The translations under genes and the position numbers were made by a program. A DNA stretch of 64,000 nt, taken from Roseomonas sp. (GTDB lineage: Bacteria > Pseudomonadota > Alphaproteobacteria > Acetobacterales > Acetobacteraceae). The first letter of the stretch is position 1. Every line of letters begins with the position of its first letter. The DNA is taken from contig JADCFQ010000023.1 in assembly GCA_020249435.1 (NCBI GenBank), forward strand, positions 1 through 64,000. The letters run 5' to 3'. Below the pieces are notes generated by a model. That model saw only the letters and a list, made by a program, of their open reading frames with translations. It was not told where the DNA came from and searched no databases. Below, in pieces: positions 15,939 to 40,581 of this stretch.

Positions 15939-16326
15939 TCAGGGCGGGACACCAGACCTAATACGCTAACGTTTCCTCATTCTTGGCTCGCAGGACCATG
16001 CGCACCCGCCCTGCTAGCCTGGACGGCGAGGTCCAGCCTCTTGAGGAGGTTGCCGGCATCTGCGAGGGCCTGCTGCTGGCCTTCACGTGTCGCGTTTAGG
16101 CTCGATTACATCGGAACTGCATGGTGAAAGATGCAAACCCTGCGTGACCCTGACGATGGGCAAATCCGTCCAAGGGTCTTGCCTCGCCAACTGTGACACT
16201 GAAGCCGTTGTTGCAGATGCCAACTTTCAGGTTATTGCCAAATGTATTGACCTTAGGCTCATACTGAGTTCCATTTATCCTGCCTTGCTTTCTAGCCTGC
16301 CCTAAAGCCGATCCAAGGAGGTAGTC
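15939..16326. other. Intergenic region with a short unidentified open remnant
   Basis: No gene is supported in these 388 bases. On the minus strand, 42 codons between 15977 and 16105 stay open and end in a plausible C-terminus (ALADAGNLLKRLDLAVQ then a stop), but there is no start and I cannot name a family; it may be a gene relic. The downstream end carries AAGGAGG for the monooxygenase at 16327. Composition turns less GC-rich from about 16090 onward. Confidence 0.35.
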
Positions 16327-17706
16327 ATGCCCAAAGCGCGTCAGATTCATCTCGGCGTCTCGATGATTGGCATGGGTTACCATTTGGCGGCTTGGCGACA
16401 CCCGCATGCTTCCCCGGGCGGAAACATGGAATTGCAGCATGCTGTGAGCGTCGTTAAGGCTGCGGAACGCGGACTGCTTGACATGGCATTTCTCGCCGAT
16501 GGTGTAGGTATTCGCTTCAATGATGTGCCAAGCGGTACACTTTCTCATGTCTGCAAGAATGTGCAATTTGAACCGCTGACCTTACTCTCTGCCCTGGCGA
16601 TGGTGACAAACCATGTCGGTTTGGTTGCGACAGCCTCCACCACCTATAATGAGCCTTATCACGTAGCTCGGAAGTTCGCTTCGCTTGATCATATCAGTGG
16701 TGGACGTGCTGGCTGGAACGTCGTCACCAGCGCAACCGATATGGAAGCTCAAAATTTTGGCTTGGTGGGTGCGCCCCCCAAGACAGGGCGTTATGACCGC
16801 GCCGCTGAATTCGTCGAAGTCGTGCGCGGTCTTTGGGATTCATGGGAGGATGACGCTTTCGTAAGAAACCAGGCGAGCGGTCTCAACTATGATCCCGCCA
16901 AATTGCACATTCTGGATCATGAAGGTGAACACTTCAGGGTCAAGGGACCGCTCAATGTTCAGCGAACGCCCCAAGGCCGACCAATCATCGTCCAGGCAGG
17001 CGCTTCAGACCAGGGGAGGGAATTGGCAGCTGCGACTGCCGATGTTGTCTATGCAGCAGCCCAAACTCTTGAAGATGCGCGTAGCTACTATCAGGACGTC
17101 AAGCGGCGCATGGCACGTTATGGACGAAATATGGATGAGCTGAAAATCATGCCGGGCATCATGGCGGTACCAGGGCTTACCCGGCAGGAAGCGCATGATA
17201 AATACGGGGTATTGCAAGAATTGGTGCAACCAATTGTTGGCCTTGGGGCGCTTGCGAATTATCTCGGTGACCTTTCGCCCTATGATCTTGATGGTCCCGT
17301 TCCTGAATTGCCGAATAGGCGTGACCATAGCCGGGGACAGATTTTTCTTGAAATGGCGCGACGCGGCAATCTTTCCATCAGGCAGCTTTATCTGTCGATT
17401 GCTGGTGGCAATGGGCATCGGCTGGTTATCGGCACGCCTAATGACATTGTGGATGCGATGGAAGAATGGTTCCAAGGCGACGCCGCTGATGGCTTCAACC
17501 TATTGCCGACATGGCTTCCCGGCGGGCTTGATGAGGTGGTTGATCTGGTCATTCCTGAAATGCAGCGACGGGGTCTTTATCGAAGAGCCTATAGAGGAAA
17601 AACTCTTCGTGAGAATCTTGGTTTGGCTTGGCCTGAACATCCCGCCGCTGCAGCGCGACGCGCTGCACTTTCCCAGGTGGCGGTCGGCGCGGGGATCATG
17701 CCATGA
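16327..17706 (+). CDS. FMNH2-dependent monooxygenase (NtaA/SnaA/DszA family, LLM class)
   Basis: A 459-aa bacterial-luciferase-like flavin monooxygenase of the NtaA/SnaA/DszA branch. Marks include WRHPHASPGG near residue 25, STTYNEPYHVARKFASLDH, RAGWNVVTS and RTPQGRPIIVQAG. Such enzymes use FMNH2 supplied by a separate reductase to oxidise amines, sulfur compounds or aminopolycarboxylates. AAGGAGG at 16315-16321 fixes the start. The stop overlaps the next start (ATGA, 17703-17706), linking it to a peptide-type binding protein. A second member of the family follows at 19311. No flavin reductase gene is nearby. Confidence 0.9.
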   Translation: MPKARQIHLGVSMIGMGYHLAAWRHPHASPGGNMELQHAVSVVKAAERGLLDMAFLADGVGIRFNDVPSGTLSHVCKNVQFEPLTLLSALAMVTNHVGLVATASTTYNEPYHVARKFASLDHISGGRAGWNVVTSATDMEAQNFGLVGAPPKTGRYDRAAEFVEVVRGLWDSWEDDAFVRNQASGLNYDPAKLHILDHEGEHFRVKGPLNVQRTPQGRPIIVQAGASDQGRELAAATADVVYAAAQTLEDARSYYQDVKRRMARYGRNMDELKIMPGIMAVPGLTRQEAHDKYGVLQELVQPIVGLGALANYLGDLSPYDLDGPVPELPNRRDHSRGQIFLEMARRGNLSIRQLYLSIAGGNGHRLVIGTPNDIVDAMEEWFQGDAADGFNLLPTWLPGGLDEVVDLVIPEMQRRGLYRRAYRGKTLRENLGLAWPEHPAAAARRAALSQVAVGAGIMP

Positions 17707-19292
17707 GCGATCTTCCAATGCGTTTGTCCGCTTTGATTGCACTAATCTTAGCGTTGATCAGTACTGATGTTACGGCTCAGAATTTACGCATCGGTATGAA
17801 GGCTGCATCTGATGGATCTGATCCGCATCAATCTTACAGTCCCAACCGAAATATCCAGATGCATGTTTATGAATCACTGGTTTTTCAGGATCAAAATCTT
17901 TGGCCCATCCCGGGTCTCGCGGAAGCATGGCGTGCTATCGATGATGAAACCTGGGAGTTTCGCCTCAGGCAAGGCGTCAAGTTCCATGACGGGACTCCTG
18001 TCACTGCCGCTGACATCGCGTTTTCGCTGCGGCGCGCTGCAGCCGCCAAGGGATTGCGGACGTACAGTGCTCAGCTTCGTAGCGTGCTAGACGTTCAAGA
18101 AATTGATGGCCGAACCATCCGCATCAAAACACGTGGCCCTGCGCCCCTGCTGCCGAATAATCTCGCTTCAATCATGATTGTATCCGCTGCGGCGGTTGGT
18201 GCGGATGCAACCGAAGACGACTTCAACGGTGGTCGCGCAGCTATTGGTACCGGACCCTATCGTTGGGTTCGCTTTAATCGGGCGCAGGATGTCATTCTTG
18301 AAAAGGCTGCTCAGCATTGGGCGGCACCTGAGCCATGGCAACGTGTTGTCTTTCGCTTTATTCCCAATGACAGCGCGCGTGTTTCCGCTCTGCTTGCTGG
18401 CGATGTTGACGTGATTGATGCCGTGCCGCCGGCGCTTTATGGCCGCGTGCGCACCGATCAGCGATCGCGCCTTTTGACCGCCACGTCAGGTTTTAATTTC
18501 TACCTTTATGTTGATAGCTGGCGCGAAAGGTCACCCTTCGTCACAGCCACCGATGGTCAGGCATTGGATCGCAATCCCTTTAGGGATCGGCGGGTCAGAT
18601 TGGCTCTGTCCCACGCGTTGAACCGTTCAGCTTTGGCGGATCGAGCGATGGAAGGTGGTGCGGAAGCCGCCGGGCAGATCGCGCCCCAGGGGTTTATTGG
18701 CCATGTCGCCGATCTGGCGATACCTGCCTATGATCCGGCACGTGCCCGTAGTTTGCTCGCAGAAGCGGGTTTTCCGCAAGGTTTTGGCCTCACGCTTCAC
18801 TGTACCGGAGATCGCTTCGCTGGTGATGCGCGGAGTTGCCAAGCCATTGGACAGATGTTCACCGCCATTGGCATAAGGACAGAAGTCGAAGCGCTACCGA
18901 CAGCAGTATTTTTCCGCCGCGCCAATCGTGGCGTGAATGGAGAACCAGAATTTTCCGTCTCTGCTTCAATGTTTTTCACAACGACAGGCGCGGCACCTGA
19001 AGGAATGAGCACCATTCTTCGGACATATAATGCCGAACTGGGGCACGGGGCATCCAATAGGGGGCGATATTCTGACGCCGAACTCGATCGGCTGATCAGC
19101 CAGATCGAGTCCATGATGGATGACGCGAAGCGTGAGGAACTCACGCAACAAGCCGTGCGCCGCGTCATGGCGGAAGCCGCCATCATTCCGGTATTTTTCG
19201 TCAGATCAGCCTGGGGCATGACACGAAATCTTACGGTGACGCCGCGTGGTGACCAATACACCATGGCGACCGGCATTCGACAAATACGATGA
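17703..19292 (+). CDS. ABC transporter substrate-binding protein, family 5 (peptide/nickel/opine type)
   Basis: A 529-aa periplasmic receptor of the DppA/OppA/NikA class with a signal peptide (hydrophobic LSALIALILALIS, cleavage near VTAQ). Family marks include PGLAEAWRAIDDETWEFRLR, GVKFHDGTPVTAADIAFSL and YDPARARSLLAEAGFP. It lies between two DszA/NtaA-type monooxygenases and overlaps the first by four bases. No permeases or ATPases accompany it, so it must borrow a transporter or sense the monooxygenase substrate. The ligand cannot be read from sequence. Confidence 0.9.
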   Translation: MSDLPMRLSALIALILALISTDVTAQNLRIGMKAASDGSDPHQSYSPNRNIQMHVYESLVFQDQNLWPIPGLAEAWRAIDDETWEFRLRQGVKFHDGTPVTAADIAFSLRRAAAAKGLRTYSAQLRSVLDVQEIDGRTIRIKTRGPAPLLPNNLASIMIVSAAAVGADATEDDFNGGRAAIGTGPYRWVRFNRAQDVILEKAAQHWAAPEPWQRVVFRFIPNDSARVSALLAGDVDVIDAVPPALYGRVRTDQRSRLLTATSGFNFYLYVDSWRERSPFVTATDGQALDRNPFRDRRVRLALSHALNRSALADRAMEGGAEAAGQIAPQGFIGHVADLAIPAYDPARARSLLAEAGFPQGFGLTLHCTGDRFAGDARSCQAIGQMFTAIGIRTEVEALPTAVFFRRANRGVNGEPEFSVSASMFFTTTGAAPEGMSTILRTYNAELGHGASNRGRYSDAELDRLISQIESMMDDAKREELTQQAVRRVMAEAAIIPVFFVRSAWGMTRNLTVTPRGDQYTMATGIRQIR

Positions 19293-19310
19293 AGCAGGAG
19301 GGTTAAGTCC

Positions 19311-20678
19311 TTGGGCAAAAAGCAACTCAAGTTTGGGGCTTTTTTGAGCGTCCCTGGCAATCATCTGGCCGGCTGGCGGCATCCCGATGCGGATACCTCC
19401 TGCGATATGGATTTTGGTTGGTATATGCGCCTGACACAAATGGCGGAGGCTGCAAAGTATGATTGCATTTTTTTTCAGGATACGGTCGCGGTAGGGGGTA
19501 GCGATGCCCTTAAGGCGGGCGATATGACGCGCACCAGCCTGTCACGTATCGTAAAGCTCGAACCAACAGCATGCCTGGCGGCGCTGGCCATGGGTACCAG
19601 CCACATCGGCTTGGTGGCAACCGCAACAACAACCTTCAACGAACCATATAATATTGCGCGGCGCTTCGCGACCATTGACCATATCAGCAACGGGCGTTGC
19701 GGTTGGAATTTGGTGACTTCCCAGATTGAGGACGAGGCAGGGAACTTCAATCTGGATACGCATGTTGATCACGCGGCGCGTTATGAACGCGCCATTGAAT
19801 TTTACGAAGTGGTTTCCGGCTTATGGGATTCGTGGGAAGCGGATGCATTCCTGAAGGATAAGGAACGCGGTGTGTGGTTTGACTATGATCGCATGCATTT
19901 CCTTGATCATCATGGAAAGCATTTTCATGTGCGTGGTCCGCTTAATGTCTCACGTACACCGCAGGGTAGACCTATTGTGGCGCAGGCGGGGTCTTCTGAG
20001 CCAGGCCGGGAATTGGCCGCACGCACGGCGGATGTGGTCTTCACTGCCCAGACCGAATTGGCAGAGGCGCGTGAATTCTTTGCCGACGTGAAGGGACGCA
20101 CCGCGAAATATGGTCGTACCCCCGATGACATCAAGATCATGCCGGGTATCACGCCGGTCATTGGCAGAACCATGGAAGAAGCTCAGGAAAAATATGATCG
20201 GCTGCAGGCATTATTGCCTGATGATGTTGCCCTTGCCGCGCTTGCTCGCTTCACCCGCGGTATTGATATTTTCTCCTTTCCCCTCGATGGTCCTATGCCA
20301 GACCTGCCAGAGACGAATGCCGCAAAGTCGCGTCAGAAGCTGATCATGGATATGGCTCGGAAGTATAACATGACGCTCCGCCAAGTGGCGCGGTCGGTGT
20401 CAGCCGCGCAGGGGCATCGGGTATTGGTGGGCACACCAGAATATATCGCTGATGAGTTGCAGGAATGGCTAGAGAAGGATGCGGCAGATGGCTTCAACGT
20501 CATCTGCAATTACTATCCAAAGCCTTTTGAGGAATTTTCCAATCTTGTCATTCCGGAACTGCAGCGGCGCGGCATTTTTCGAACTGACTATGAAGGCACA
20601 ACGCTCAGGGAAAATCTTGGGCTCAAGGTGCCAGAAAATCGCTTCACGGCGGCACGAAAGGCGCGGGTGGCCGATTGA
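19311..20678 (+). CDS. FMNH2-dependent monooxygenase (NtaA/SnaA/DszA family), second copy
   Basis: A 455-aa paralogue of the enzyme at 16327-17706 with the same landmarks: WRHPDADTSCD near residue 24, TTTFNEPYNIARRFATIDH, RCGWNLVTSQ and RTPQGRPIVAQAG. The start is TTG at 19311, supported by AGGAGG at 19296-19301 with a nine-base gap. It is third in an operon with the first monooxygenase and the family-5 binding protein. The pair may oxidise related compounds or work at successive steps. It converges with the M28-like gene, whose stop is only six bases away. Confidence 0.88.
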   Translation: MGKKQLKFGAFLSVPGNHLAGWRHPDADTSCDMDFGWYMRLTQMAEAAKYDCIFFQDTVAVGGSDALKAGDMTRTSLSRIVKLEPTACLAALAMGTSHIGLVATATTTFNEPYNIARRFATIDHISNGRCGWNLVTSQIEDEAGNFNLDTHVDHAARYERAIEFYEVVSGLWDSWEADAFLKDKERGVWFDYDRMHFLDHHGKHFHVRGPLNVSRTPQGRPIVAQAGSSEPGRELAARTADVVFTAQTELAEAREFFADVKGRTAKYGRTPDDIKIMPGITPVIGRTMEEAQEKYDRLQALLPDDVALAALARFTRGIDIFSFPLDGPMPDLPETNAAKSRQKLIMDMARKYNMTLRQVARSVSAAQGHRVLVGTPEYIADELQEWLEKDAADGFNVICNYYPKPFEEFSNLVIPELQRRGIFRTDYEGTTLRENLGLKVPENRFTAARKARVAD

Positions 20679-20684
20679 CTAGTG

Positions 20685-22388
20685 CTAGGCCAAAGCAAAA
20701 ATAGCCTCATTCAGTGCCTCCTTTGCTTGTGTTATTGCAAAGGTGATGCGGTTCTGGGCACGTAGAGCATCCACCGCAGCGAATTTCGCTGCATCGGTAC
20801 CCGCAGTGGTTTCAGCCAGCCGTCTGATGGGTTCAAGTGTTGCCCAGGCCGGCATTGGAAGAGCGTGGGGATGCAGGAACCGATCGCCATCTGTATAATC
20901 CGCCGGCACCAGGGCGCGGGAAACCCTCATCAAAGCTGCGTTGCATTTCCTCGCCGCTTGCGTGCCCTTTGGGGCGCCGAGTTTACCCAGTCGCTCAGCG
21001 AGGTCGATGGCTTCAAGGAGTGACGTTTGCAATCGAGAGATGGGAATGGTGTCGTCAAGTCTCGTCGCCAGAACGTCAATCTCGGACTGCAATGACTCCA
21101 GCATGGCCAGGTGATTGAGCGGTAGGATGGGATTTGTCAGCAACCGCCAGACGACATGCAGCATGACGCGGGTGTCACGCACCAAATTTGTCTCATCAAC
21201 TTTATCAATAAGGTCGTCTGCCGTATGCCACCACCAGCCAAGGGCGTTGCGTGCCGCCTGATGTTTATGGGGTTGTTCGCTCAGCGTCCCGAACATTGAT
21301 GGGATGCCGATACCAACGAAGCTATCGTCACTGCTGCGATTTTTGCGCTTGCCCTTATAGGTTTCATTGGTGTGGATGCTAATCGCCTCATGCGCCAGAT
21401 CATGCAGTTCGGCCATGGCCGCGGCATTGGCAAGCACGGTGGCGCCCATGCCGCCAAGACTGTCCACGTTCACATGGGCGACACAAAACTGATCAAGTTC
21501 CTGCCAATGCGCGTCGGCATACCACGCTGATCCGGAATAGCGCCCATGTGAATGCCCAGACCAGAAGCAAATACGCAGGCCTCGCTGCCAGGCACTGTGG
21601 TTCTTTGCGCAAAGCCGGGCCACCTCCATCATGCCGGCATTTGCAGACCCATTATCCATGACACCATGATACCAGGTATCATGATGCCCGGAAAAAAGAA
21701 CGAAGGGGTTATCCTCCTCCGCGGGTCCTGGCAGTTCGGCGACCAGAATGGGCGTCTTGCGCCATCCGGTATCAACTTCGGCTTCCATGGTGATCAGTGT
21801 CTGGCGACCCGCCTGCAGTGCTTTGCGAAGTGCGCTTCCTTCAGCGTGGGAAATTGAACAAACAACGGTAGTCGGCAATTCCGCCAGCGAAGCTTCACCC
21901 GGACTGCCCCAGATCGGTGAAATGCACATTTCATGAATGTGTTCATGGTGGCTGATGTGCAATTCAGCGATGGCGCCCGCCAGTCGAGCGCGCCTTGCGG
22001 CAGCCGGGGTGGCCATGCCCTCCATAAGCAGGATGCGTCCGCGCAGGTCCTTGTCGGCGAAATCCTCCTCGGTGCCATGGCCAATATAAACGGGTATGCC
22101 CGAAATGCCGCCGGGCGGAGAGGGGCAGGAAAAGGATTGCGTGATTGCCTTTATTGGCTTTCCAGCCACCCGCACGGAAGCTGCACCCGGAAGGCTGATA
22201 TAGGCGTCATGCAACAGGATTTTCGTTGTATATCCATAATCACGCATTCTCTTTTCGATGAAGTTCAGGGCTTCACGTTCCTCATCAGTACCTGAAAGCT
22301 TGACCCAGTGCGCGATATGCCGAAGGTTATCCATCATCTCTGCGCCGCTTACGGCATTTGACGGTACCTTTGGCAGTAACTGGGACAT
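20685..22388 (-). CDS. M28-family peptidase-like protein with altered metal/catalytic site
   Basis: A 567-aa protein with a PA-like insert (~95-200) and an M28 zinc-peptidase core. Visible ligands are H235/D237 (SGHHD), D245 (MDNGSANAG), D309 (VNVDS) and a late His (WWWHTADD). The position of the usual Glu-Glu (GEE.GLLGS in aminopeptidases) instead reads GHSHGRYSGS (278-287), replacing the catalytic base and one ligand. It has no signal peptide and is probably cytoplasmic. With the M20 gene upstream in the same direction it could hydrolyse amide or peptide-like products of the nearby monooxygenases, which is inference. Confidence 0.82.
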   Translation of the reverse strand: MSQLLPKVPSNAVSGAEMMDNLRHIAHWVKLSGTDEEREALNFIEKRMRDYGYTTKILLHDAYISLPGAASVRVAGKPIKAITQSFSCPSPPGGISGIPVYIGHGTEEDFADKDLRGRILLMEGMATPAAARRARLAGAIAELHISHHEHIHEMCISPIWGSPGEASLAELPTTVVCSISHAEGSALRKALQAGRQTLITMEAEVDTGWRKTPILVAELPGPAEEDNPFVLFSGHHDTWYHGVMDNGSANAGMMEVARLCAKNHSAWQRGLRICFWSGHSHGRYSGSAWYADAHWQELDQFCVAHVNVDSLGGMGATVLANAAAMAELHDLAHEAISIHTNETYKGKRKNRSSDDSFVGIGIPSMFGTLSEQPHKHQAARNALGWWWHTADDLIDKVDETNLVRDTRVMLHVVWRLLTNPILPLNHLAMLESLQSEIDVLATRLDDTIPISRLQTSLLEAIDLAERLGKLGAPKGTQAARKCNAALMRVSRALVPADYTDGDRFLHPHALPMPAWATLEPIRRLAETTAGTDAAKFAAVDALRAQNRITFAITQAKEALNEAIFALA

Positions 22389-22430
22389 TGTCGCTTCCTT
22401 ATATTTCGATATGTTCTGGATGACCTTCGA

Positions 22431-23846
22431 TCATTTTTTGGCCAGGGACATCGCGGGCGCAGCACCGGCGCCGATATCCCACCAAAGGCCCGCCATCATT
22501 TGCAGGCCCTCCCGCAATAGTGGGGCCAAGGCATGCTCATCGGGGCCGTGTTGATTACATCCGGCATATGAATTCGGGATCCAGATGACTGGGATATTCA
22601 ACTCCTCAATGAACATGTCTGAGGGGTTCGAACCGGAAGAGTTTGGAATGATATTCGGATCCCGCCCAGTGGTATTCTTCAAGGAGCAAGCCGTGAAGCT
22701 CACCCAGGAATTATCCGGATCAGTTCTGGCTGCACCGAACATATCCCTATCCAATACGGGAATGATCGTGACATCAGTGAAACCTGTCGCATCCAGATGC
22801 TCCCGCAATGCGGGCACGATGCGCGAGCCCGGAATATCTACTGTGTGGCGAACCTGTAGCCTGGCTTTCGCCTCCCCCTGTACGGCATTTGTCGGTGCAT
22901 CCGGATGGCCAGTCTGTTGGGCAAGGACAATCACGCTCGTCCAACCGAAGATTTTCTCGCCCTTTGTCAATCCTGGCTCACCCCAGCCCGCATCAGGTTC
23001 TGGCAGACCCGGAATTTCCTCAAAGAAAATATCGCCAATCGCACGCCGGACGGAATTCGGCATGGCGTTTGGTAGCCAGTCTTTCACCAGGATGCGGCCG
23101 CTGGGCGAAACAATGGATGCCAGTGCATGCGCCAGCCGGAAGGCAGGGTCTTTGAGGACTCCGCCCCAATGTCCGGAGTGATGCGCATGGTCACGCAAAT
23201 GAACAACCAGATCAAAGGCAATGCCGCCACGTGCACCCAGTTTCAATTCAGGCATGAAGGTTGTCTGCCGTGGCCCATCCAATCCAATGAAGACATCCGC
23301 TGCAAGAAAATCCCGATGGGATTGTAGAATCTCCCTCAGGCCGGGCGAGCCTTGCTCCTCACCTGTTTCGATCAGGAGTTTGACATTAAAGCCAAGTCTG
23401 CCGTCCCGTTCCGCCAGCACAGCCCGCAGCGCTTCAATTGCAATCAGGTGTTGGCCCTTATTGTCGACTGTTCCGCGACCATACCATTTATCGCCCTGGA
23501 TCGTGATACGCCATGGTTCAAGGCCTTTGCTCCATTTATCAGGTAGCCCGCGCACAACATCGCCATGGCCATAGACAAGTACAGTAGGTAGGGATGAATC
23601 TTCCATCCTCACGCCAATAAAGATTGGGCCGCGTCCGGCACGCGGATTTTCAATAACGCGTGTATTAAAGCCCATGCCGTCAACCAATTGCGGCAGCGTC
23701 GCATCACAATAATGCTGCAAGGCAGGCAAGCTATCGGGCATCTGGCTTTCGGTGCGAACCGTGACCAGGCGCTGCAGGGCCTCAAAGAAAATGCCGTCAT
23801 CGAAGCATTGTTCCGCCCGCGAGATGGCAGAAGTTCTTGTGCTCAT
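22431..23846 (-). CDS. M20-family metallopeptidase (dipeptidase/deacylase type)
   Basis: A 471-aa M20 enzyme with a complete motif set: VLVYGHGDVV (metal ligand and Asp), GRGTVDNKGQ (bridging Asp), IETGEEQGS (catalytic Glu plus ligand Glu), a Gly-rich dimerisation domain with HHSGHWGG, and C-terminal GPDEH. It is cytoplasmic and likely cleaves a small amide or dipeptide with a two-zinc centre. ATG at 23846 is preferred over an in-frame TTG 18 bases upstream. It precedes the M28-like gene by 42 bases in the same direction, so both are probably one transcript. Confidence 0.88.
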   Translation of the reverse strand: MSTRTSAISRAEQCFDDGIFFEALQRLVTVRTESQMPDSLPALQHYCDATLPQLVDGMGFNTRVIENPRAGRGPIFIGVRMEDSSLPTVLVYGHGDVVRGLPDKWSKGLEPWRITIQGDKWYGRGTVDNKGQHLIAIEALRAVLAERDGRLGFNVKLLIETGEEQGSPGLREILQSHRDFLAADVFIGLDGPRQTTFMPELKLGARGGIAFDLVVHLRDHAHHSGHWGGVLKDPAFRLAHALASIVSPSGRILVKDWLPNAMPNSVRRAIGDIFFEEIPGLPEPDAGWGEPGLTKGEKIFGWTSVIVLAQQTGHPDAPTNAVQGEAKARLQVRHTVDIPGSRIVPALREHLDATGFTDVTIIPVLDRDMFGAARTDPDNSWVSFTACSLKNTTGRDPNIIPNSSGSNPSDMFIEELNIPVIWIPNSYAGCNQHGPDEHALAPLLREGLQMMAGLWWDIGAGAAPAMSLAKK

Positions 23847-24223
23847 GACACTATCTCTATCCAATCAGGCCAAATGAGGCGTGGGCAGTAAGCAACCCTG
23901 TCTCATCCGGCCATGGTCTCAAGGGTGTTTCAGAATGCTAAGCCTGTTTGGTAGAGCGAAGCAACAGCGCATCGGATTGACCTGATTGTGCCGCGATGGA
24001 CAGGCGTATTTTTCGGCTTTTGAATGCCCTCTGCTGGTGTGGCCGAAAGGCGTTGATGGCGACGCTCACCGAGGATCCGCTTGTTCATTTTCAGGTTGCG
24101 TCTACGCCCATTGTATGGTCCGCTTCAAATAAGGCGAAAGGGATGGCATTCTCTGAAGCGCATCCTCTGACGCTGCCACAAAAGGCGCTCAACACGCAGC
24201 GCCATCTCAGGGGAGGAACAACC
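23847..24223. other. Divergent intergenic region, no gene seen
   Basis: These 377 bases lie between the outward-facing M20 gene and the binding-protein gene at 24224 and should contain two promoters. The reading frame upstream of 24224 is open back to 23996, but that extension lacks a signal peptide and family likeness. GGGAGGA at 24211-24217 marks the true start at 24224. No operator or riboswitch was recognised. Confidence 0.5.
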
Positions 24224-25453
24224 ATGCTTGATCTTTCGCGCCGCCTTTTGCTTGGCTCCGCTGCGGCTGCGCCACTTATCGGCCCAGTTGGCGCACAGAC
24301 GCAGCCCACGATCAGGATCGGCGTTCTTTCCGATATGTCTGGCCCATACCGCGATATAAGCGGGCCGAATTGCGTTTCTGCCGCCCGGCAAGCCGCGCAG
24401 GATTTTGGTGCGGCCGCCGGCTTCAACGTGGAAATCCTACAGGCGGATCACCAGAACAAGGCCGATGTTGGGTTGAATATCGCGCGCCAATGGTTCGACC
24501 GTGAAGGTGTTGATGCCATCACCGATGTGAACAATAGCGGCATCGCCTTCGCGCTGAATGGCCTGGCCCGAGAGAAGAACAAGGCGCATATCAATTCTGG
24601 CGCTGCATCAGTGGATTTCACCGGCCCGCATTGCAGCCCGAATGCCGTACACTGGACCACCGATACCTGGGCCAATGCGCAATCAACCGGCGGCGCGCTC
24701 GCAAAGGCGGGCGCGAAACGCTGGTATTGCATCACTGCCGACTATGCTTTCGGCCACAGCGTACAACGCGAAGTCACGCGCGTTGTTGAAGCCCAAGGTG
24801 GGCAAATGGTTGGGTCTTCGGTCTATCCTTTTCCGCAGACAACAGATTTCTCTTCCTTCCTTGTTACCGCCGCCGCGGCACGGCCGGATGTGATTGCGCT
24901 CTGCAACGCGGGTACGGATATGATCAATTGCGTCAAGCAGGGTCAGGAATTCGGCCTTGGTCGTCGGCAGATCAGGGTGGCGGCAATGATCGCCTTTGTC
25001 GTTGATGTTCATACGATCGGTTTGTCGGCAGCGCAGGGCCTTACGTTTACTGAGAGTACCTATTGGGATTTGAATGACCGTACCCGTGCATTGACGGCGC
25101 GGCTCAGGCCAAAAATGGTGAATAACCACTTCCCCAATAGCGTTACCTTCCAGTGCTATTCTGTGGTGCTACATTATTTGAAGGCGGCCGCCGCCATCGG
25201 TGCGGCGCAAGCCAAATCCTCCGGCCTTGCAACGATTGAGGCGATGAAGCGCCTTCCCACGGATGATGACGCCTTCGGGCCGGGCATGGTGCGCGCCGAT
25301 GGGCGCAAGCTGCACCCAACCATTCTGCTGCAAGCCAAGTCGCCGGGTGAGAGCCGCGGTCCCTGGGATTATCTGACACCAATTGCGCAAACGCCGGCCG
25401 ATCAGGCCTTCCGCCCGATCGCTGAAGGCAATTGCGCCTTCTTGCGGAGTTGA
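24224..25453 (+). CDS. Branched-chain amino-acid-type ABC transporter substrate-binding protein
   Basis: A 409-aa periplasmic receptor of the LivJ/AmiC class. The leader has a twin-arginine-like SRRLLLGSAAAA and a cleavage site near VGAQT. The mature protein starts IRIGVLSDMSGPYRDISGPN, and GAKRWYCITADYAFGHS is the usual hinge region. The start is set by GGGAGGA at 24211-24217. Its stop shares a base with the next start (TGATG), coupling it to a TctC-type receptor. No LivHMGF genes are present, so it is another orphan receptor. Confidence 0.9.
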   Translation: MLDLSRRLLLGSAAAAPLIGPVGAQTQPTIRIGVLSDMSGPYRDISGPNCVSAARQAAQDFGAAAGFNVEILQADHQNKADVGLNIARQWFDREGVDAITDVNNSGIAFALNGLAREKNKAHINSGAASVDFTGPHCSPNAVHWTTDTWANAQSTGGALAKAGAKRWYCITADYAFGHSVQREVTRVVEAQGGQMVGSSVYPFPQTTDFSSFLVTAAAARPDVIALCNAGTDMINCVKQGQEFGLGRRQIRVAAMIAFVVDVHTIGLSAAQGLTFTESTYWDLNDRTRALTARLRPKMVNNHFPNSVTFQCYSVVLHYLKAAAAIGAAQAKSSGLATIEAMKRLPTDDDAFGPGMVRADGRKLHPTILLQAKSPGESRGPWDYLTPIAQTPADQAFRPIAEGNCAFLRS

Positions 25454-36248: not shown

Positions 36249-36306
36249 GACCAAGCTGACGATTTGAGTAACGGAGGGTTTCTGGGTCATCGTAACCCCA
36301 AGGAAA

Positions 36307-36459
36307 GTGAAGATGAGCCGGAAATCCTCCGCTTTTCTCACGCAGGTGCCAGCCGAAAAACTGGTCCGTGATATTCGCCGCGCTACGTACAAACGCCAAT
36401 CCGCCGAGGACGGGATCCGCTTCGTCCTGGAAGGGCTCCGCGGCGAGGCAAGCATTGCC
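36307..36459 (+). pseudogene. Truncated IS3-family transposase orfA fragment
   Basis: From GTG at 36307 the frame reads a typical IS3-family orfA N-terminus: AEKLVRDIRRATYKRQSAED then IRFVLEGLRGEASIA. Family resemblance stops abruptly after codon 51, where ELCRREGI would be expected. No orfB or right end is present. It marks an old insertion next to the guaA-bounded island. It differs from the relic at 26562, which belongs to another IS3 subgroup. Confidence 0.72.
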
Positions 36460-36461
36460 GT

Positions 36462-36533
36462 GCGCCGGTTGCGGTTTTTGCGGAAGATGGGCTGGCCTGG
36501 TTGCTGGCGGAAGGGGCAGGGCGGATGCGGTAG
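36462..36533 (+). other. Possible C-terminal remnant of an interrupted gene
   Basis: Directly after the IS fragment a different frame reads 23 protein-like codons (APVAVFAEDGLAWLLAEGAG then RMR) ending in TAG at 36531. It may be the tail of the gene that once ended opposite guaA and lost its 5' part to the IS. No family assigned. Confidence 0.3.
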
Positions 36534-36565
36534 GCGCGCAGGATCAAAGCCCTATCCGCAACCTG

Positions 36566-36738
36566 TCACTCCCACTCAATCGTCCCCGGCGGCTTCGACG
36601 TAATGTCATAGGTCGCGCGATTGATCCCGCGCACCTCATTCACAATCCGCGCCGCAACGCGGTTGAGGAAGCCCATATCAAACGGATAGACATCCGCGGT
36701 CATGCCATCCGTGCTGGTCACGGCGCGTAGTGTGCGGG
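36566..36738 (-). repeat. Displaced duplicate of the guaA 3' end (distal island boundary)
   Basis: These ~173 bases repeat the last ~57 codons of guaA (38387-38559) in the same orientation, including the final IEWE and stop. By hand count the first 165 bases differ at 10 positions; most are synonymous, with one Val-to-Ala change near the end. The copy has no upstream guaA body, and the similarity ends exactly where the nucleotidyltransferase gene stops (36739). Duplicated 3' ends of guaA are a known outcome of genomic-island integration at this gene. I read this as one of the two junctions. Confidence 0.85.
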
Positions 36739-37044
36739 CTAACTATCACTCTGGGTAAATCCTGCAAACCACTTGCATTTTTCCGAGCGGACGAAATCAA
36801 ACTCAGCCTCCTCGTCCACGGTCATGATTGTAATGTCAATCGGGAATTCGAGGCAAATGGGCTCGAGTATTTGGCGGGCAGCCTGCCCATCGGCTATGGA
36901 TCCGCAGACAAGTAGGATATCCACGTCTGACCAAGCTGACTTCGAATTTATGGCCGAACCAAAAACGTAGGCGTTAATCTTGGATGCAGATTGCAATTGG
37001 TAGATGTCGTGAGCTACAGCCTCAAGGATTAGTGTGACTGTCAC
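36739..37044 (-). CDS. MNT-type minimal nucleotidyltransferase (antitoxin-like)
   Basis: A 101-aa protein with the polymerase-beta nucleotidyltransferase signature GS-x9-D-x-D: G29-S30, then D40 and D42 in SDVD, with D70 as the likely third acidic residue. Size and motif match MNT proteins, which often act as antitoxins (AMPylating HEPN toxins) or as parts of defence loci. No HEPN partner is recognisable here. The start overlaps the stop of the 214-aa gene (ATGA at 37041-37044), so it is translationally coupled. Base composition is clearly lower in GC than the flanks. It ends exactly at the guaA-repeat border. Confidence 0.8.
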
Positions 37045-37685
37045 GAAGCCAAACGCCCAAAGATCGACGACTGATCGCAGATTTCTACACCAAGTTGGTC
37101 GGCGACTTCCCTACCGAGCTGAGAAACACGGCCGTAGGGTGTATTCTTAAGGAGCACGTCAAATGGTGCAAGCGTATCATAAGCGGTGCGCACGGCGTCG
37201 GCGGTGACCTCGTAAGCGTCTGTTAATGCCACGACAATACTATCGCCAGTTTTGCGGTGTAGTCGAAAAACGTGATCGAACAACCTCTCAACTCTAACAA
37301 TATTATTGTGCTGATTAAACAGGCGTTCAATGAAGGTCAGACTGGGATTTCGGTAAAATGAAACGTTAGCCTCGTTGTTCAAAGCGCGATAAAGATCGTA
37401 CATCTTGCCCCACGCGACGCCCTTAAACTCCAAATCGTTTATCGCTCGTCCCGTCCACAGTGCCACGTTCGGAATACTTAGGATGAACTGTGTTCGAGGT
37501 TCGGTGGAAAGTAACTGCGTATAATCGGTGATCTCAACCCGTTTGGTTGAGATCACGCCAACGATGGCGGGTGGGGCTTCCTTTCGATCAATCTGGATAA
37601 CGTCACGTGCAAGGCGCACAACTCTAGCCACCTTTTCATGCTGTTGCAGGCTTCCGATGAGCCAAAATGAGTGATCCTTAGACAT
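37041..37685 (-). CDS. Unrecognised 214-aa protein, middle gene of the island cassette
   Basis: I cannot assign a family. The sequence is soluble and mixed alpha/beta, without signal or membrane segments. Notable stretches are PNVALWTGRAINDLEF, GVAWGKMYDLYRALN, VERLFDHVFRLHRKTGDS and a Gly/Asn-poor C-terminus with a polar SSIFGRL end. Conserved-looking charged residues in the second half (DHVFRLHRK, ALTDAYEVTADAVR) leave room for a catalytic role, but no known nuclease or nucleotidyltransferase motif is evident. It overlaps the HNH gene by eight bases and the MNT gene by four, so the three proteins are probably made together. AT-rich like both neighbours. Confidence 0.7.
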   Translation of the reverse strand: MSKDHSFWLIGSLQQHEKVARVVRLARDVIQIDRKEAPPAIVGVISTKRVEITDYTQLLSTEPRTQFILSIPNVALWTGRAINDLEFKGVAWGKMYDLYRALNNEANVSFYRNPSLTFIERLFNQHNNIVRVERLFDHVFRLHRKTGDSIVVALTDAYEVTADAVRTAYDTLAPFDVLLKNTPYGRVSQLGREVADQLGVEICDQSSIFGRLAS

Positions 37686-38379
37686 CTCCCACCATCATCC
37701 GGTCCATTGCTTCTGGGAATTTCATGCCTCCGTCCTTGTTAGCCACATGCCGGGCGATCAGATCATCATTATGCTGTCGAAACTCCTCCAGAGTTCTTGG
37801 TTCATGACCCACCATCAGCTTTCTATTTTGTTTTAGGATGGCGATAATGTGCTTGTTATTAGGTATAATGATACCAAGAATTTTACGATACCAGACCGAC
37901 AGGGTTTCACTCTCGAGATCGAAGCGCGCTTCGGAACTCGGCCCATATTGCTCAAATATCACTCTATTACCACACAAGAGTGGCTCAATTGCATTACGAA
38001 CTTCTTCGCGAGAAATATAAGTACAAATACCAAACAAATTGGCGAGTCGTTCGGCCCTTGTATGCTTCCACTGTCGTATTGTGTCGTCCGTAAACTCCCG
38101 TGGTGCCTTATCGATCATGGTATGGCAGTTGGCGCAGAGAAGAATTAGGTTTTCGTATGACCCTCGCTCTTTATTCGTCAATTCCAGACTTGATCGTGGG
38201 CCATTTTTGCTCGCGGCTATAATGTGGGCCATTTCGCCGAAATGAATTGTCTTGCCGTTAGACGTCTCTACGAACAAATGCTGAAGACAGTTAGGATTTT
38301 GACAATAACCGGCAGAGTCCGCGAAAAGCCTTATCTTTGTTCCGGCGTCAGGATTTGCATCTCCACGACAGCATTTCAT
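37678..38379 (-). CDS. HNH endonuclease family protein
   Basis: A 233-aa protein with an N-terminal HNH domain. Zinc-type cysteines C26/C31 (YCQNPNC) and C82/C85 (CANC) frame H52 (EMAHIIAAS), N77 (YENLILL) and H86. The C-terminal ~130 residues (SREEVRNAIEPLL to the end) are not recognised and may sense or bind a partner. ATG at 38379 lies seven bases beyond the guaA stop. The only Shine-Dalgarno-like sequence, GGGAG, sits in guaA's final codons. It is first in a three-gene overlapping cassette in a low-GC island. A DNA-cleaving role, for example against phage, is plausible but inferred. Confidence 0.85.
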   Translation of the reverse strand: MKCCRGDANPDAGTKIRLFADSAGYCQNPNCLQHLFVETSNGKTIHFGEMAHIIAASKNGPRSSLELTNKERGSYENLILLCANCHTMIDKAPREFTDDTIRQWKHTRAERLANLFGICTYISREEVRNAIEPLLCGNRVIFEQYGPSSEARFDLESETLSVWYRKILGIIIPNNKHIIAILKQNRKLMVGHEPRTLEEFRQHNDDLIARHVANKDGGMKFPEAMDRMMVGDV

Positions 38380-38386
38380 AATATTT

Positions 38387-38559
38387 TCACTCCCACTCAA
38401 TCGTCCCCGGCGGCTTCGACGTGATGTCATAAGTCACGCGATTGATCCCGCGCACCTCATTCACAATCCGCGCCGCAACACGATTAAGAAAACCCATATC
38501 AAACGGATAGACATCCGCCGTCATGCCATCCGTGCTGGTCACGGCACGTAGCGCGCAGG
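38387..38559 (-). repeat. guaA 3' end matching the displaced copy (proximal island boundary)
   Basis: This in-gene segment pairs with 36566-36738 as a diverged direct repeat. Between them lie only the three cassette genes. Similarity starts at the guaA stop codon and extends to about the ACALRAV codons. Because both copies encode a nearly identical protein end, either could be the original or the imported one. Confidence 0.85.
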
Positions 38560-39967
38560 CTTGGTCGTAACTCCGCCCATCGCCCATCACGCCCACGGTG
38601 CGCACCGGCAGCAGCACGGCAAAAGCCTGCCAGATCGCATCATACAAACCGGCATTGCGAATTTCTTCCAGGAACACGCTATCCACGCGGCGCAGCAGAT
38701 CGGCCTTTTCGCGCGTCACCTCACCGGGGATGCGAATGGCCAGGCCCGGCCCCGGGAAGGGATGGCGGCCCACAATTTCTTCCGGGATGCCAAGCTCCCG
38801 CCCCAGCGCGCGCACCTCATCCTTGAACAGGTCGCGCAAGGGCTCCACCAGCTGCATGCGCATATGCGCGGGCAGGCCGCCAACATTATGGTGCGATTTG
38901 ATCGTGACCGATGGCCCACCAGTGGCGGAGACACTCTCGATCACATCCGGATACAGCGTACCCTGCGCGAGGAAATCCGCACCGCCCAGCTTGTTCTGTT
39001 CATCCTCGAAAACTTCAATGAACAGCCGCCCAATGGTCTTGCGCTTCACCTCCGGGTCCGTCACGCCGGAAAGCTGGCCCAGAAACAAATGCGATGCATC
39101 GCGATGGATCAGCTTGATGTTGAAACGATCCCGAAAGGTGCTGACCACCTGTTCGCTCTCATTGGCGCGCATCAGGCCATGATCCACATAAATGCAGGTC
39201 AATTGATCGCCAATCGCCTCATGAATCAGCACCGCGGCGACCGAGCTATCAACGCCGCCGGAAAGCCCACAGACAACGCGCCCTTTGCCCACCTGGGCAC
39301 GAATGCGCGCCACCGCTTCCTGGCGGAAGCCGGCCATGGTCCAATCACCGGCGCAGCCGCAAACCCCATGGGTGAAATTCTTGAGCAACGCCGCGCCATG
39401 CGGGGTATGCACCACTTCCGGGTGGAACATGGTGCCGTAAAACTGCCGCGCATCATCGGCGATCACGGCGAAGGGCGCGCCCTCACTGCTTGCGACACTC
39501 CGAAACCCAGGCGGTAGCGCGGTGATGCGATCACCATGGCTCATCCAAACCTGTTCACGCGCCCCCTTGGCCCAAACCCCGCGCGTGATGGCGCATTCGC
39601 CAGTTACGTCCACAAAGGCGCGGCCGAATTCGCGGTGATCGGAAGGCTCCACCAGGCCGCCTAATTGCGCCGCCAAAGTTTGCTGTCCGTAACAAATCCC
39701 CAGTATCGGCACGCCAAGGGTGAATACGGCATCCGGCGCGCGCGGGCTTTCGCCCTCATTCACGCTGGCCGGCCCGCCGGATAGGATAATGCCGCGCGGC
39801 GCAAAGGCGCGGATGCGTGCCTCGGGCGCGTGGTGAAAGGGCCAAACCTCGCAATACACGCCGGATTCTCGCACGCGGCGCGCAATCAGCTGCGTCACCT
39901 GGCTACCGAAATCGAGGATCAGCACATGATCGTGCCGGGGGGCGGAGTCTTGCGGATGAGCGGCCAT
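38387..39967 (-). CDS. guaA: GMP synthase (glutamine-hydrolysing)
   Basis: Makes GMP from XMP, ATP and glutamine. The 526-aa protein has the class-I glutamine amidotransferase half ([15 protein letters not shown], catalytic Cys in GICYGQQ, His-Pro-Glu in FHPEV), the PP-loop ATPase half ([15 protein letters not shown]) and the dimerisation domain ending [12 protein letters not shown] at 39967 is preferred over a GTG five codons upstream. The gene is intact, but its last ~57 codons occur again at 36566-36738, showing that something integrated or recombined at its 3' end. Confidence 0.95.
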
Positions 39968-40002
39968 GCGGGCTTGCACCACAAGCCGCGCCTTGGGGCA
40001 AG

Positions 40003-40581
40003 TTACGCTTCAGGCGCCGCCGCGGTCGCAGCCAGCAACGTGTCAATCGGCTCCCATAGCATCGCCACCTGCTCCACGTGCTGGCCGCCGACACGGGTCT
40101 GGCCGCGCGCCACCACCCGCCCGCCCAGATGGCGGTAGAACCATTGGGTTGGGTTGTCGCGCAGCACCCAAACCATGGCCGAACGGCACCCCACCACCCG
40201 CAAATGCGCCGCCGCCGCGCGCATCAGGCGCCGCCCCGTGCCGCGGTCCCGGTAATCCTCATTCAAATAGAGCGTATTGATCTCCCCATCCGCCAGCCCC
40301 CCACGGCGGGACCGCCCGCCAGAGGCAAAGCCGATGATCGTCGCCTCATCCGGGGCGCTGCCTTCCGGCGCGTCATCACCGGATGCGACCGCGACAAACA
40401 CGGCATAGCCGCCGCGCCGATCGAACATGTCACGCTGATAGCCAGCGGCCAGGCGGGTCGCGGAAAGCCCGGCCAGATAGGCATCGGGCAGAATGCCGGC
40501 ATAGGCGCTGCGCCATACCGCGACATGCAGCGCGCCAATCGCGGCGGCATCGCTGGCACGGGCGCGGCGGATCGCGATCAT
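40003..40581 (-). CDS. GNAT-family N-acetyltransferase
   Basis: A 192-aa GNAT protein. [20 protein letters not shown] is the usual N-terminal strand and helix, and the acetyl-CoA loop is [20 protein letters not shown], followed by [16 protein letters not shown] at 40581 overlaps the stop of the rsmB-like gene upstream (ATGA), so it is translationally coupled. The acceptor substrate is unknown. It sits between rsmB and guaA, all on the minus strand, and could be co-transcribed with guaA. Confidence 0.88.

What the first reader, a model, noticed from the sequence alone, without database searches (positions are those of the whole stretch)
36739..38379. Three-gene overlapping cassette (HNH nuclease, unknown protein, MNT nucleotidyltransferase) in a guaA-bounded island: candidate new defence or toxin-antitoxin system
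Seen: three minus-strand genes overlap by 8 and 4 bases, have much lower GC than the flanks, and fill the space between two copies of the guaA 3' end. The first has a complete HNH centre, the third a GS-x9-D-x-D nucleotidyltransferase centre; the second matches no family I know. Known: HNH effectors and MNT proteins recur in anti-phage and toxin-antitoxin loci, and islands at housekeeping 3' ends often carry them. Inferred: HNH is the effector and MNT the regulator or antitoxin, with the 214-aa protein as sensor or linker. I know no described system with this gene trio.
Basis: partly seen in the sequence, partly recalled or inferred. Interest (0 to 1): 0.85.

Follow-up and report, generated by a model that had tools for sequence, protein, structure and literature searches.

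The report
Undescribed three-gene mobile bacterial immunity operon
Three overlapping genes inserted behind a housekeeping gene form a conserved, mobile unit, seen in many groups of bacteria, that pairs a DNA-cutting enzyme with a tiny nucleotide-transferring enzyme and a protein of unknown family, and is probably an undescribed defence or toxin-antitoxin system.

Summary
The HNH, 214-aa and MNT genes overlap by 8 and 4 nt; they start 7 nt after the guaA stop and end at a second guaA 3' end (175 nt, 93%). The trio is a real conserved operon: in the 80 best genome loci found with the HNH alone, the middle gene follows in 79 and the MNT in 77 (78 with a larger profile); both remaining misses are contig ends. 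All 5 foreign genomes found with the middle protein have the same order; 3 of these loci are new. The HNH domain is of CBASS Cap5 type, without SAVED. The middle protein has no significant family match; its model (pLDDT 96) is a tandem duplication, probably of a restriction-endonuclease-like fold without (D/E/Q)xK; Tyr158 is invariant (96 of 96). The MNT keeps GS...DxD in 96 of 96. Neighbours are rich in defence genes against a control. Trios lie behind guaA in 8 of 80 loci and in one E. coli ssrA/intA island. Best reading: a mobile, probably anti-phage DNase module restrained by a nucleotidyltransferase, like HepT/MntA with a DNase as toxin. Defence is inferred from anatomy and context; the MNT mechanism is untested.

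The parts
37678..38379 (-). HNH protein, 233 aa: Cap5-type HNH domain (about residues 1-115) plus a C-terminal helical domain; proposed DNase effector
   Evidence: Pfam HNH and HNH_2 above cut-off; PADLOC CBASS endonuclease effectors and PDC-M68A, mostly over residues 11-118; AF2 pLDDT 91.6; Foldseek to Cap5 8fmf E 1.9e-6; over all 98 rows at hand H52, N77, C82 98, H86 97, C26 and C31 96 (missing in L006 and the cut L075), C85 90 and His in 8
37041..37685 (-). Middle protein, 214 aa: tandem duplication of a probably non-catalytic restriction-endonuclease-like domain; Tyr158 invariant
   Evidence: No significant family match (best Pfam 0.44, NCBIfam 0.09, PADLOC 0.034, PHROGs none); AF2 pLDDT 96.4; N half against C half hhalign E 2.1e-15; weak Foldseek matches to EndoMS, RPB5, SfsA, tRNA endonuclease, viral Mrr; [DEQ]xK in 0 of 79 second and 1 of 73 first domains at the expected strand; Y158 in 96 of 96 rows that reach it
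36739..37044 (-). Minimal nucleotidyltransferase (MNT), 101 aa, GTG start
   Evidence: G29, S30, D40, D42 in 96 of 96 rows, E78 in 91; profile hits to MNT structures 1ylq, 5yep (MntA), 2rff; Pfam only below cut-off for the window protein (Polbeta 17 bits against 26.9) but above it for the homologue L042; position 70 is D in 48, H in 45, S in 3 of 96
38380..38386 (-). 7-nt junction between guaA stop and HNH ATG; a Shine-Dalgarno-like GGAG lies in the last guaA codons
   Evidence: Sequence; no terminator-like site in 36300-40300 (0 found, 4.3 expected) and no promoter-like site just upstream of the HNH on its strand
38387..39982 (-). guaA (GMP synthase), intact host gene and insertion target
   Evidence: Pfam GMP_synt_C 1.2e-42, GATase 1.5e-37; start codon uncertain
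38387..38561 (-). Proximal copy of the guaA 3' end (attachment-like repeat)
   Evidence: 162/175 identical to the distal copy
36566..36740 (-). Distal copy of the guaA 3' end, a gene fragment bounding the island

Best explanation
The cassette is a complete, mobile three-gene conflict module, most likely anti-phage (about 0.75), placed as cargo behind guaA by a site-specific element whose integrase is not in the island. HNH is the effector, a Cap5-type DNase whose cyclic-nucleotide sensor is replaced by a helical domain. The 214-aa protein is a non-catalytic, duplicated restriction-endonuclease-like protein that binds nucleic acid or the HNH and holds the complex. The MNT is the regulator: as MntA does to HepT, it transfers nucleotide to a partner and keeps the DNase off until infection disturbs it (about 0.4 for this step). 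The trio starts 7 nt after the guaA stop and probably uses guaA transcription. Shown here: gene order, conservation, intact active sites, defence-rich and mobile context. Inferred: DNase activity, complex, direction of regulation, trigger, expression from guaA.
For: HNH-seeded scan: middle gene in 79 and MNT in 77 of the best 80 of 171 relatives (78 with a larger profile), the other two cut by contig ends. Middle-protein-seeded scans: 5 of 5 foreign hits are trios, 3 of these loci not among the 80. Distances of the three proteins co-vary, r 0.85-0.93 over 62 loci, 0 of 2000 permutations as high. Ten phylum-level groups by record title in the HNH tree. Neighbour proteins: 174 PADLOC families in 140 proteins against 15 in 133 control proteins, including Lamassu, Gabija, PDC-M68. 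E. coli copy in an ssrA/intA island with a SAVED/ThiF/Mov34/nucleotidyltransferase gene set. guaA in the fetched flank of 8 of 80, a tyrosine integrase in between in four. Cap5 fold. MntA precedent, passages of PMC7641770.
Against: No phenotype data. MNT comes last, whereas in MNT-HEPN pairs MNT is almost always first (passages of PMC3710099). Position 70, matched by eye to the MntA ligand D71, is His in 45 of 96 MNTs. PADLOC counts are of models, several per protein, so 174 against 15 overstates the contrast; mad3, mad8 and AriA appear in both sets. No match in 50,697 phage records with one homologue's HNH and middle protein. The restriction-like fold rests on weak Foldseek matches (none with E <= 0.001). 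Co-variation of distances is expected of any operon that travels as a unit. Rare: 5 of 398 genomes of the phylum sample, own included.
Confidence: 0.55

Rival explanations
1. MNT makes a small nucleotide or oligonucleotide signal that activates or restrains the HNH through the middle protein (logic like CBASS or, recalled, Panoptes and Hailong).
For: The HNH domain is that of Cap5, which is nucleotide-gated (8fmf title); the MNT active site is intact; HalB is a very weak profile hit (E 0.16).
Against: No SAVED domain is seen in the model or hits; the MNT is about 100 aa, well below CD-NTase size (size recalled).
Confidence: 0.2
2. A toxin-antitoxin or addiction module that stabilises mobile elements, with no selected anti-phage role.
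For: Found on plasmids and integrative elements; beside a Phd/PIN pair in L029; HNH is the damaged gene in two decayed copies (L006, L080).
Against: Strong mix with defence systems; a fixed three-gene composition is unusual for a toxin-antitoxin (recalled).
Confidence: 0.2
3. A modification- or structure-dependent restriction system: the middle protein reads DNA, HNH cuts it, MNT is accessory.
For: Foldseek to EndoMS and viral Mrr; McrA is a weak hit for the HNH model (E 6e-3).
Against: Does not explain why the MNT is kept in 78 of 80 loci and its active site in 96 of 96 rows.
Confidence: 0.15
4. Unrelated hitchhiking genes that happen to overlap in one island.
For: None beyond low GC.
Against: Two seeds recover the same order.
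Confidence: 0.01

Closest known systems
CBASS Cap5 (HNH-SAVED) effector
   Same: HNH domain, 30% identity over 104 columns, Foldseek E 1.9e-6; profile hits to 7rwm, 8ysq, 8fm1
   Different: SAVED domain replaced by a helical domain; no CD-NTase; partners differ
HepT/MntA (type VII toxin-antitoxin)
   Same: Small MNT with GS-x(7-10)-DxD (60 of 62 rows) overlapping a nuclease operon; conserved Tyr in a partner
   Different: No HEPN RNase; HNH instead; third protein; MNT last; NCBIfam MntA model 12.8 bits against cut-off 60
PADLOC PDC-M68
   Same: HNH matches PDC-M68A (3.1e-29 over residues 14-115; a second model 2.2e-7 over 68-209)
   Different: PDC-M68B is a 581-aa LmuB-like protein absent from the trio; seen only as a separate neighbour in L049, L051, L053
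Mrr / EndoMS / RPB5 fold
   Same: Element order and weak structural matches of the middle protein
   Different: Duplicated domain; no (D/E/Q)xK
Integrative elements at guaA
   Same: guaA 3' end repeated at both ends; trios with a tyrosine integrase behind guaA in L045, L048, L054, L060
   Different: No integrase in the 1.8-kb island of the window

Membership tests
CBASS | CD-NTase gene | tested here: not met
   None among the three genes by PADLOC and Pfam; the MNT is 101 aa
CBASS | SAVED or other cyclic-nucleotide receptor domain on the HNH | tested here: not met
   Model C-terminus is helical; the best Foldseek matches align about 104 columns of Cap5
HEPN/MNT (type VII TA) | HEPN RNase partner | tested here: not met
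   No HEPN family in the Pfam scan of the trio
HEPN/MNT (type VII TA) | MntA-type MNT with GSX10DXD | tested here: inconclusive
   GS and DxD in 96 of 96, spacing 7-9 in 58 of 62; MntA model far below cut-off
HEPN/MNT (type VII TA) | Neutralisation by nucleotidylation of a Tyr | not testable with these tools
   Needs biochemistry; Y158 of the middle protein is invariant
PDC-M68 | M68B partner | tested here: not met
   Middle protein and MNT do not match M68B; M68B in 4 of 50 host genomes, 3 of them beside the trio on the other strand
PD-(D/E)xK nuclease | (D/E/Q)xK catalytic motif | tested here: not met
   0 of 79 second domains, 1 of 73 first domains
PD-(D/E)xK-like fold | Core topology | tested here: inconclusive
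   Element order fits; Foldseek matches weak
guaA genomic island | Direct repeat of guaA 3' end at both ends | tested here: met
guaA genomic island | Integrase in the element | tested here: not met
   The trio fills the space between the repeats; present in kin islands
Anti-phage defence system | Demonstrated protection against phage | not testable with these tools
   Needs plaque assays

The most novel reading that the evidence does not exclude
A new class of innate immunity in which a Cap5-type DNase is gated not by a cyclic nucleotide but by protein nucleotidylation: the MNT modifies the invariant Tyr158 of a duplicated pseudo-restriction-enzyme, which in turn locks the HNH; infection reverses or blocks the mark.
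Probability: 0.25. Interest if true: 0.88.

Novelty: new variant of a known kind. Interest (0 to 1): 0.72.

Why it matters
It is a compact, fixed three-gene module spread over several phyla that no library searched here names, with a middle protein family without annotation. It links two studied themes, CBASS-type HNH effectors and MNT regulators, in a combination not met in the papers searched, and a natural copy in E. coli makes it directly testable.

Tried and rejected
PDC-M68 membership was considered because the HNH matches PDC-M68A; rejected, since M68B is a separate LmuB-like neighbour. Homology of the HNH helical domain to the PDC-M68A-like neighbours was tested and not found (at E <= 5 the helical profile hit only trio HNHs); against this, one PDC-M68A model aligns over residues 68-209 at 2.2e-7, so a distant tie is not excluded. 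CBASS and HEPN/MNT membership rejected (table). Which guaA 3' copy is native was tested on the 13 differing sites against 24 relatives and stays undecided. Synteny downstream of guaA in ten same-genus stretches gave no clear empty site. The solved-structure search for the middle protein gave only a chance hit (E 0.67). Phage records: no match with the HNH (E <= 1e-10) or middle protein (E <= 1e-3) of L091 as queries; the window's own proteins were not run there. E. coli: the Klebsiella short form gave no match. tRNA sites: 12 of 60 loci have a tRNA or tmRNA anywhere in the stretch, so no common tRNA target was seen. Literature: sought the trio and found no description of it in the listings (passages of two papers were read); some searches sought related matters. 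The library lacks most subscription papers and bioRxiv preprints, so absence is weak evidence.

Full report
Observation. The three genes, overlaps, motifs and the two guaA 3' ends are as described. The cassette's GC is 0.480 against a minimum of 0.532 in 591 other windows of the same length. The island holds nothing but the trio: 7 nt separate the guaA stop from the HNH ATG, and the MNT stop codon overlaps the distal guaA copy by 2 nt. No terminator-like site was found in 36300-40300, and no promoter-like site just before the HNH on its strand; a GGAG lies in the last guaA codons about 10 nt before the ATG. That the trio is expressed from guaA is an inference.

Conservation. A scan of the genome collection (84,980 species) with an HNH alignment of five sequences found 171 relatives, of which the best 80 were kept. 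Profiles of the middle protein and MNT built from seven loci outside these 80 were then applied: the middle protein follows in 79 and MNT in 77 at E <= 0.01, on the same strand. Of the three exceptions, L083 and L021 end at contig ends, and L084 has an MNT by the larger profile (3.5e-8). The commonest spacings are 4-nt overlaps (44 of 79 for the first pair, 31 of 77 for the second). Apart from L080 (203 nt, because its HNH is broken) and L084 (-92, start misplaced by the script) the first gap runs from -14 to +16, the second from -37 to +32; start codons were chosen by script. From the other side, the middle-protein profile hit 5 of 398 genomes of the phylum, own included; the 4 others have HNH before and MNT after, but two of them (L126 = L045, L129 = L086) are loci already in the set of 80. 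With the single protein, 2 of 385 genomes of the class matched, own included; the other, L002, is a trio. So 5 of 5 foreign hits are trios and 3 are new loci. In plasmids, 9 records of five genera match the middle protein; one record of each genus was opened and all five (Vibrio, Polymorphobacter, Phaeobacter, Rhizobium, Ensifer) have the three genes, the MNT unannotated in Polymorphobacter and the HNH damaged at its start in Rhizobium. A Klebsiella plasmid has a short form. In viral contigs, 5 of 12 loci are trios (L089-L093); L092 has the contig length and coordinates of the Proteus locus L074. Distance matrices of the three proteins over 62 loci correlate at 0.93 (HNH-middle), 0.85 (HNH-MNT) and 0.89 (middle-MNT), 0 of 2000 permutations as high, as expected of a unit that travels together. 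The HNH tree of 65 rows covers ten phylum-level groups by record title, seven of them by one row each, and several of these are metagenome bins that may hold stray contigs.

The proteins. HNH: the first 115 residues are a Cap5-type HNH domain (PADLOC; PDB profile; Foldseek). Over all 98 rows at hand H52, N77 and C82 are invariant and H86 is kept in 97. The rest is helical, with P147, W163, N174 and H203 invariant in the 65-row alignment, and shows no SAVED domain. The best profile hit in the PDB is 9om4_A, 'HNH endonuclease' (3.7e-26); a search for its code found no paper. Middle protein: no significant family match for the window protein in four libraries, nor for five homologues in Pfam and PADLOC or the E. 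coli one in Pfam. The AF2 model is very confident (pLDDT 96.4). Its halves are homologous (hhalign E 2.1e-15). Short forms of 119-136 aa in L079, L082 and L085-L088 leave the first half empty in the alignment (73 of 79 rows fill it). Element order and a run of weak structural matches (EndoMS, RPB5, SfsA, tRNA endonuclease, viral Mrr) point to a restriction-endonuclease-like fold, although metallo-beta-lactamases and retroviral integrases also appear at similar E-values with lower probability. The (D/E/Q)xK motif is absent in 79 of 79 second domains and 72 of 73 first domains, so a nuclease role is unlikely. Tyr158 is the only residue invariant in all 79 rows and stays so in 96 of 96. MNT: G29, S30, D40, D42 in 96 of 96, E78 in 91. 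MntA's metal ligands are D39, D41 and D71 (passages of PMC7641770); the place that I match by eye to D71 is D in 48, H in 45 and S in 3.

Context. For 81 loci (85 less 3 near-copies and 1 cut) the nearest open frame of at least 150 aa on each side was taken, those over 800 aa left out: 140 proteins. They hit 174 PADLOC families at 1e-5; the listed top 25 include mad3, Lamassu LmuA and LmuB, AriA, PDC-M68B and Gabija GajA; 9 had a phage integrase domain and 4 a GMP synthase domain. A control of 133 proteins from 14 stretches of host genomes hit 15 families. Models are redundant, so the ratio overstates the contrast, and mad3, mad8 and AriA occur in both sets. guaA lies in the fetched flank (up to 6 kb) of 8 of 80 loci: L012, L027, L029, L045, L047, L048, L054, L060. 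In L012 and L027 the HNH starts 4 and 10 nt after the guaA stop, with GTG starts chosen by script. In L045 and L060 a tyrosine integrase lies between guaA and trio by Pfam; L048 and L054 have the same stretch at 95% DNA identity. L045, L048 and L054 come from Gilvimarinus, Thalassospira and Halomonas, so this is recent transfer across classes (class assignment recalled). L047 matches L060 at 81-89% but lacks about 1 kb covering most of the integrase. L029 has trio, a Phd/PIN pair and a second guaA 3' end (88.6% over 166 nt). So integrase-less islands at guaA have precedents. In E. coli I4, the only one of 5,426 genomes with a match to the Proteus trio (the Klebsiella short form matched none), it sits in an ssrA/intA island that also holds a nucleotidyltransferase, ThiF, Mov34 and SAVED gene set; identities to the window are 38, 27 and 25%.

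Interpretation. The conserved order, the MNT with intact active site, the immune-type HNH and the mobile, defence-rich setting support an effector-regulator module. The HepT/MntA precedent (AMPs transferred to a Tyr next to the RNase site; PMC7641770, abstract and passages) and the invariant Tyr158 suggest that the MNT marks the middle protein. This step is untested, and signal production, plain addiction and DNA-reading restriction stay open. Neither CBASS nor HEPN/MNT membership holds, because defining parts are missing.

Novelty. Pfam, PADLOC, NCBIfam and PHROGs and five literature searches aimed at it gave no name for the trio. The PADLOC copy dates from 2023 and most subscription papers are not held, so a later description cannot be excluded.

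Noticed in passing
L145 19989-21615 (NZ_CP195978.1): E. coli I4 carries the trio in an ssrA/intA island near a SAVED/ThiF/Mov34/nucleotidyltransferase gene set; annotated only as HNH endonuclease and two hypothetical proteins.
   Followed up: partly
L045, L048, L054 4401-7594: Integrase plus trio behind guaA, 95% identical DNA in Gilvimarinus, Thalassospira and Halomonas: recent transfer across classes.
   Followed up: yes
L029 3631-7657: Island of trio plus Phd/PIN toxin-antitoxin pair between guaA and a second guaA 3' end, no integrase seen.
   Followed up: partly
L006 4249-4971; L080 355-1068: HNH gene damaged (start out of frame; internal stop) while the middle gene and MNT are open: the effector may decay first, but these are two cases only.
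   Followed up: no
L049, L051, L053 downstream of the trio: A PDC-M68 (LmuB-like) pair on the opposite strand beside the trio in Sphingomonadales.
   Followed up: partly
L079, L082, L085-L088, L008, L093: Short form of the middle protein with about one domain; the HNHs of those in the tree lie outside the main group or on long branches.
   Followed up: partly
window 16001-24500: Long GC dip to 0.53-0.57 in a window of mean 0.605.
   Followed up: no
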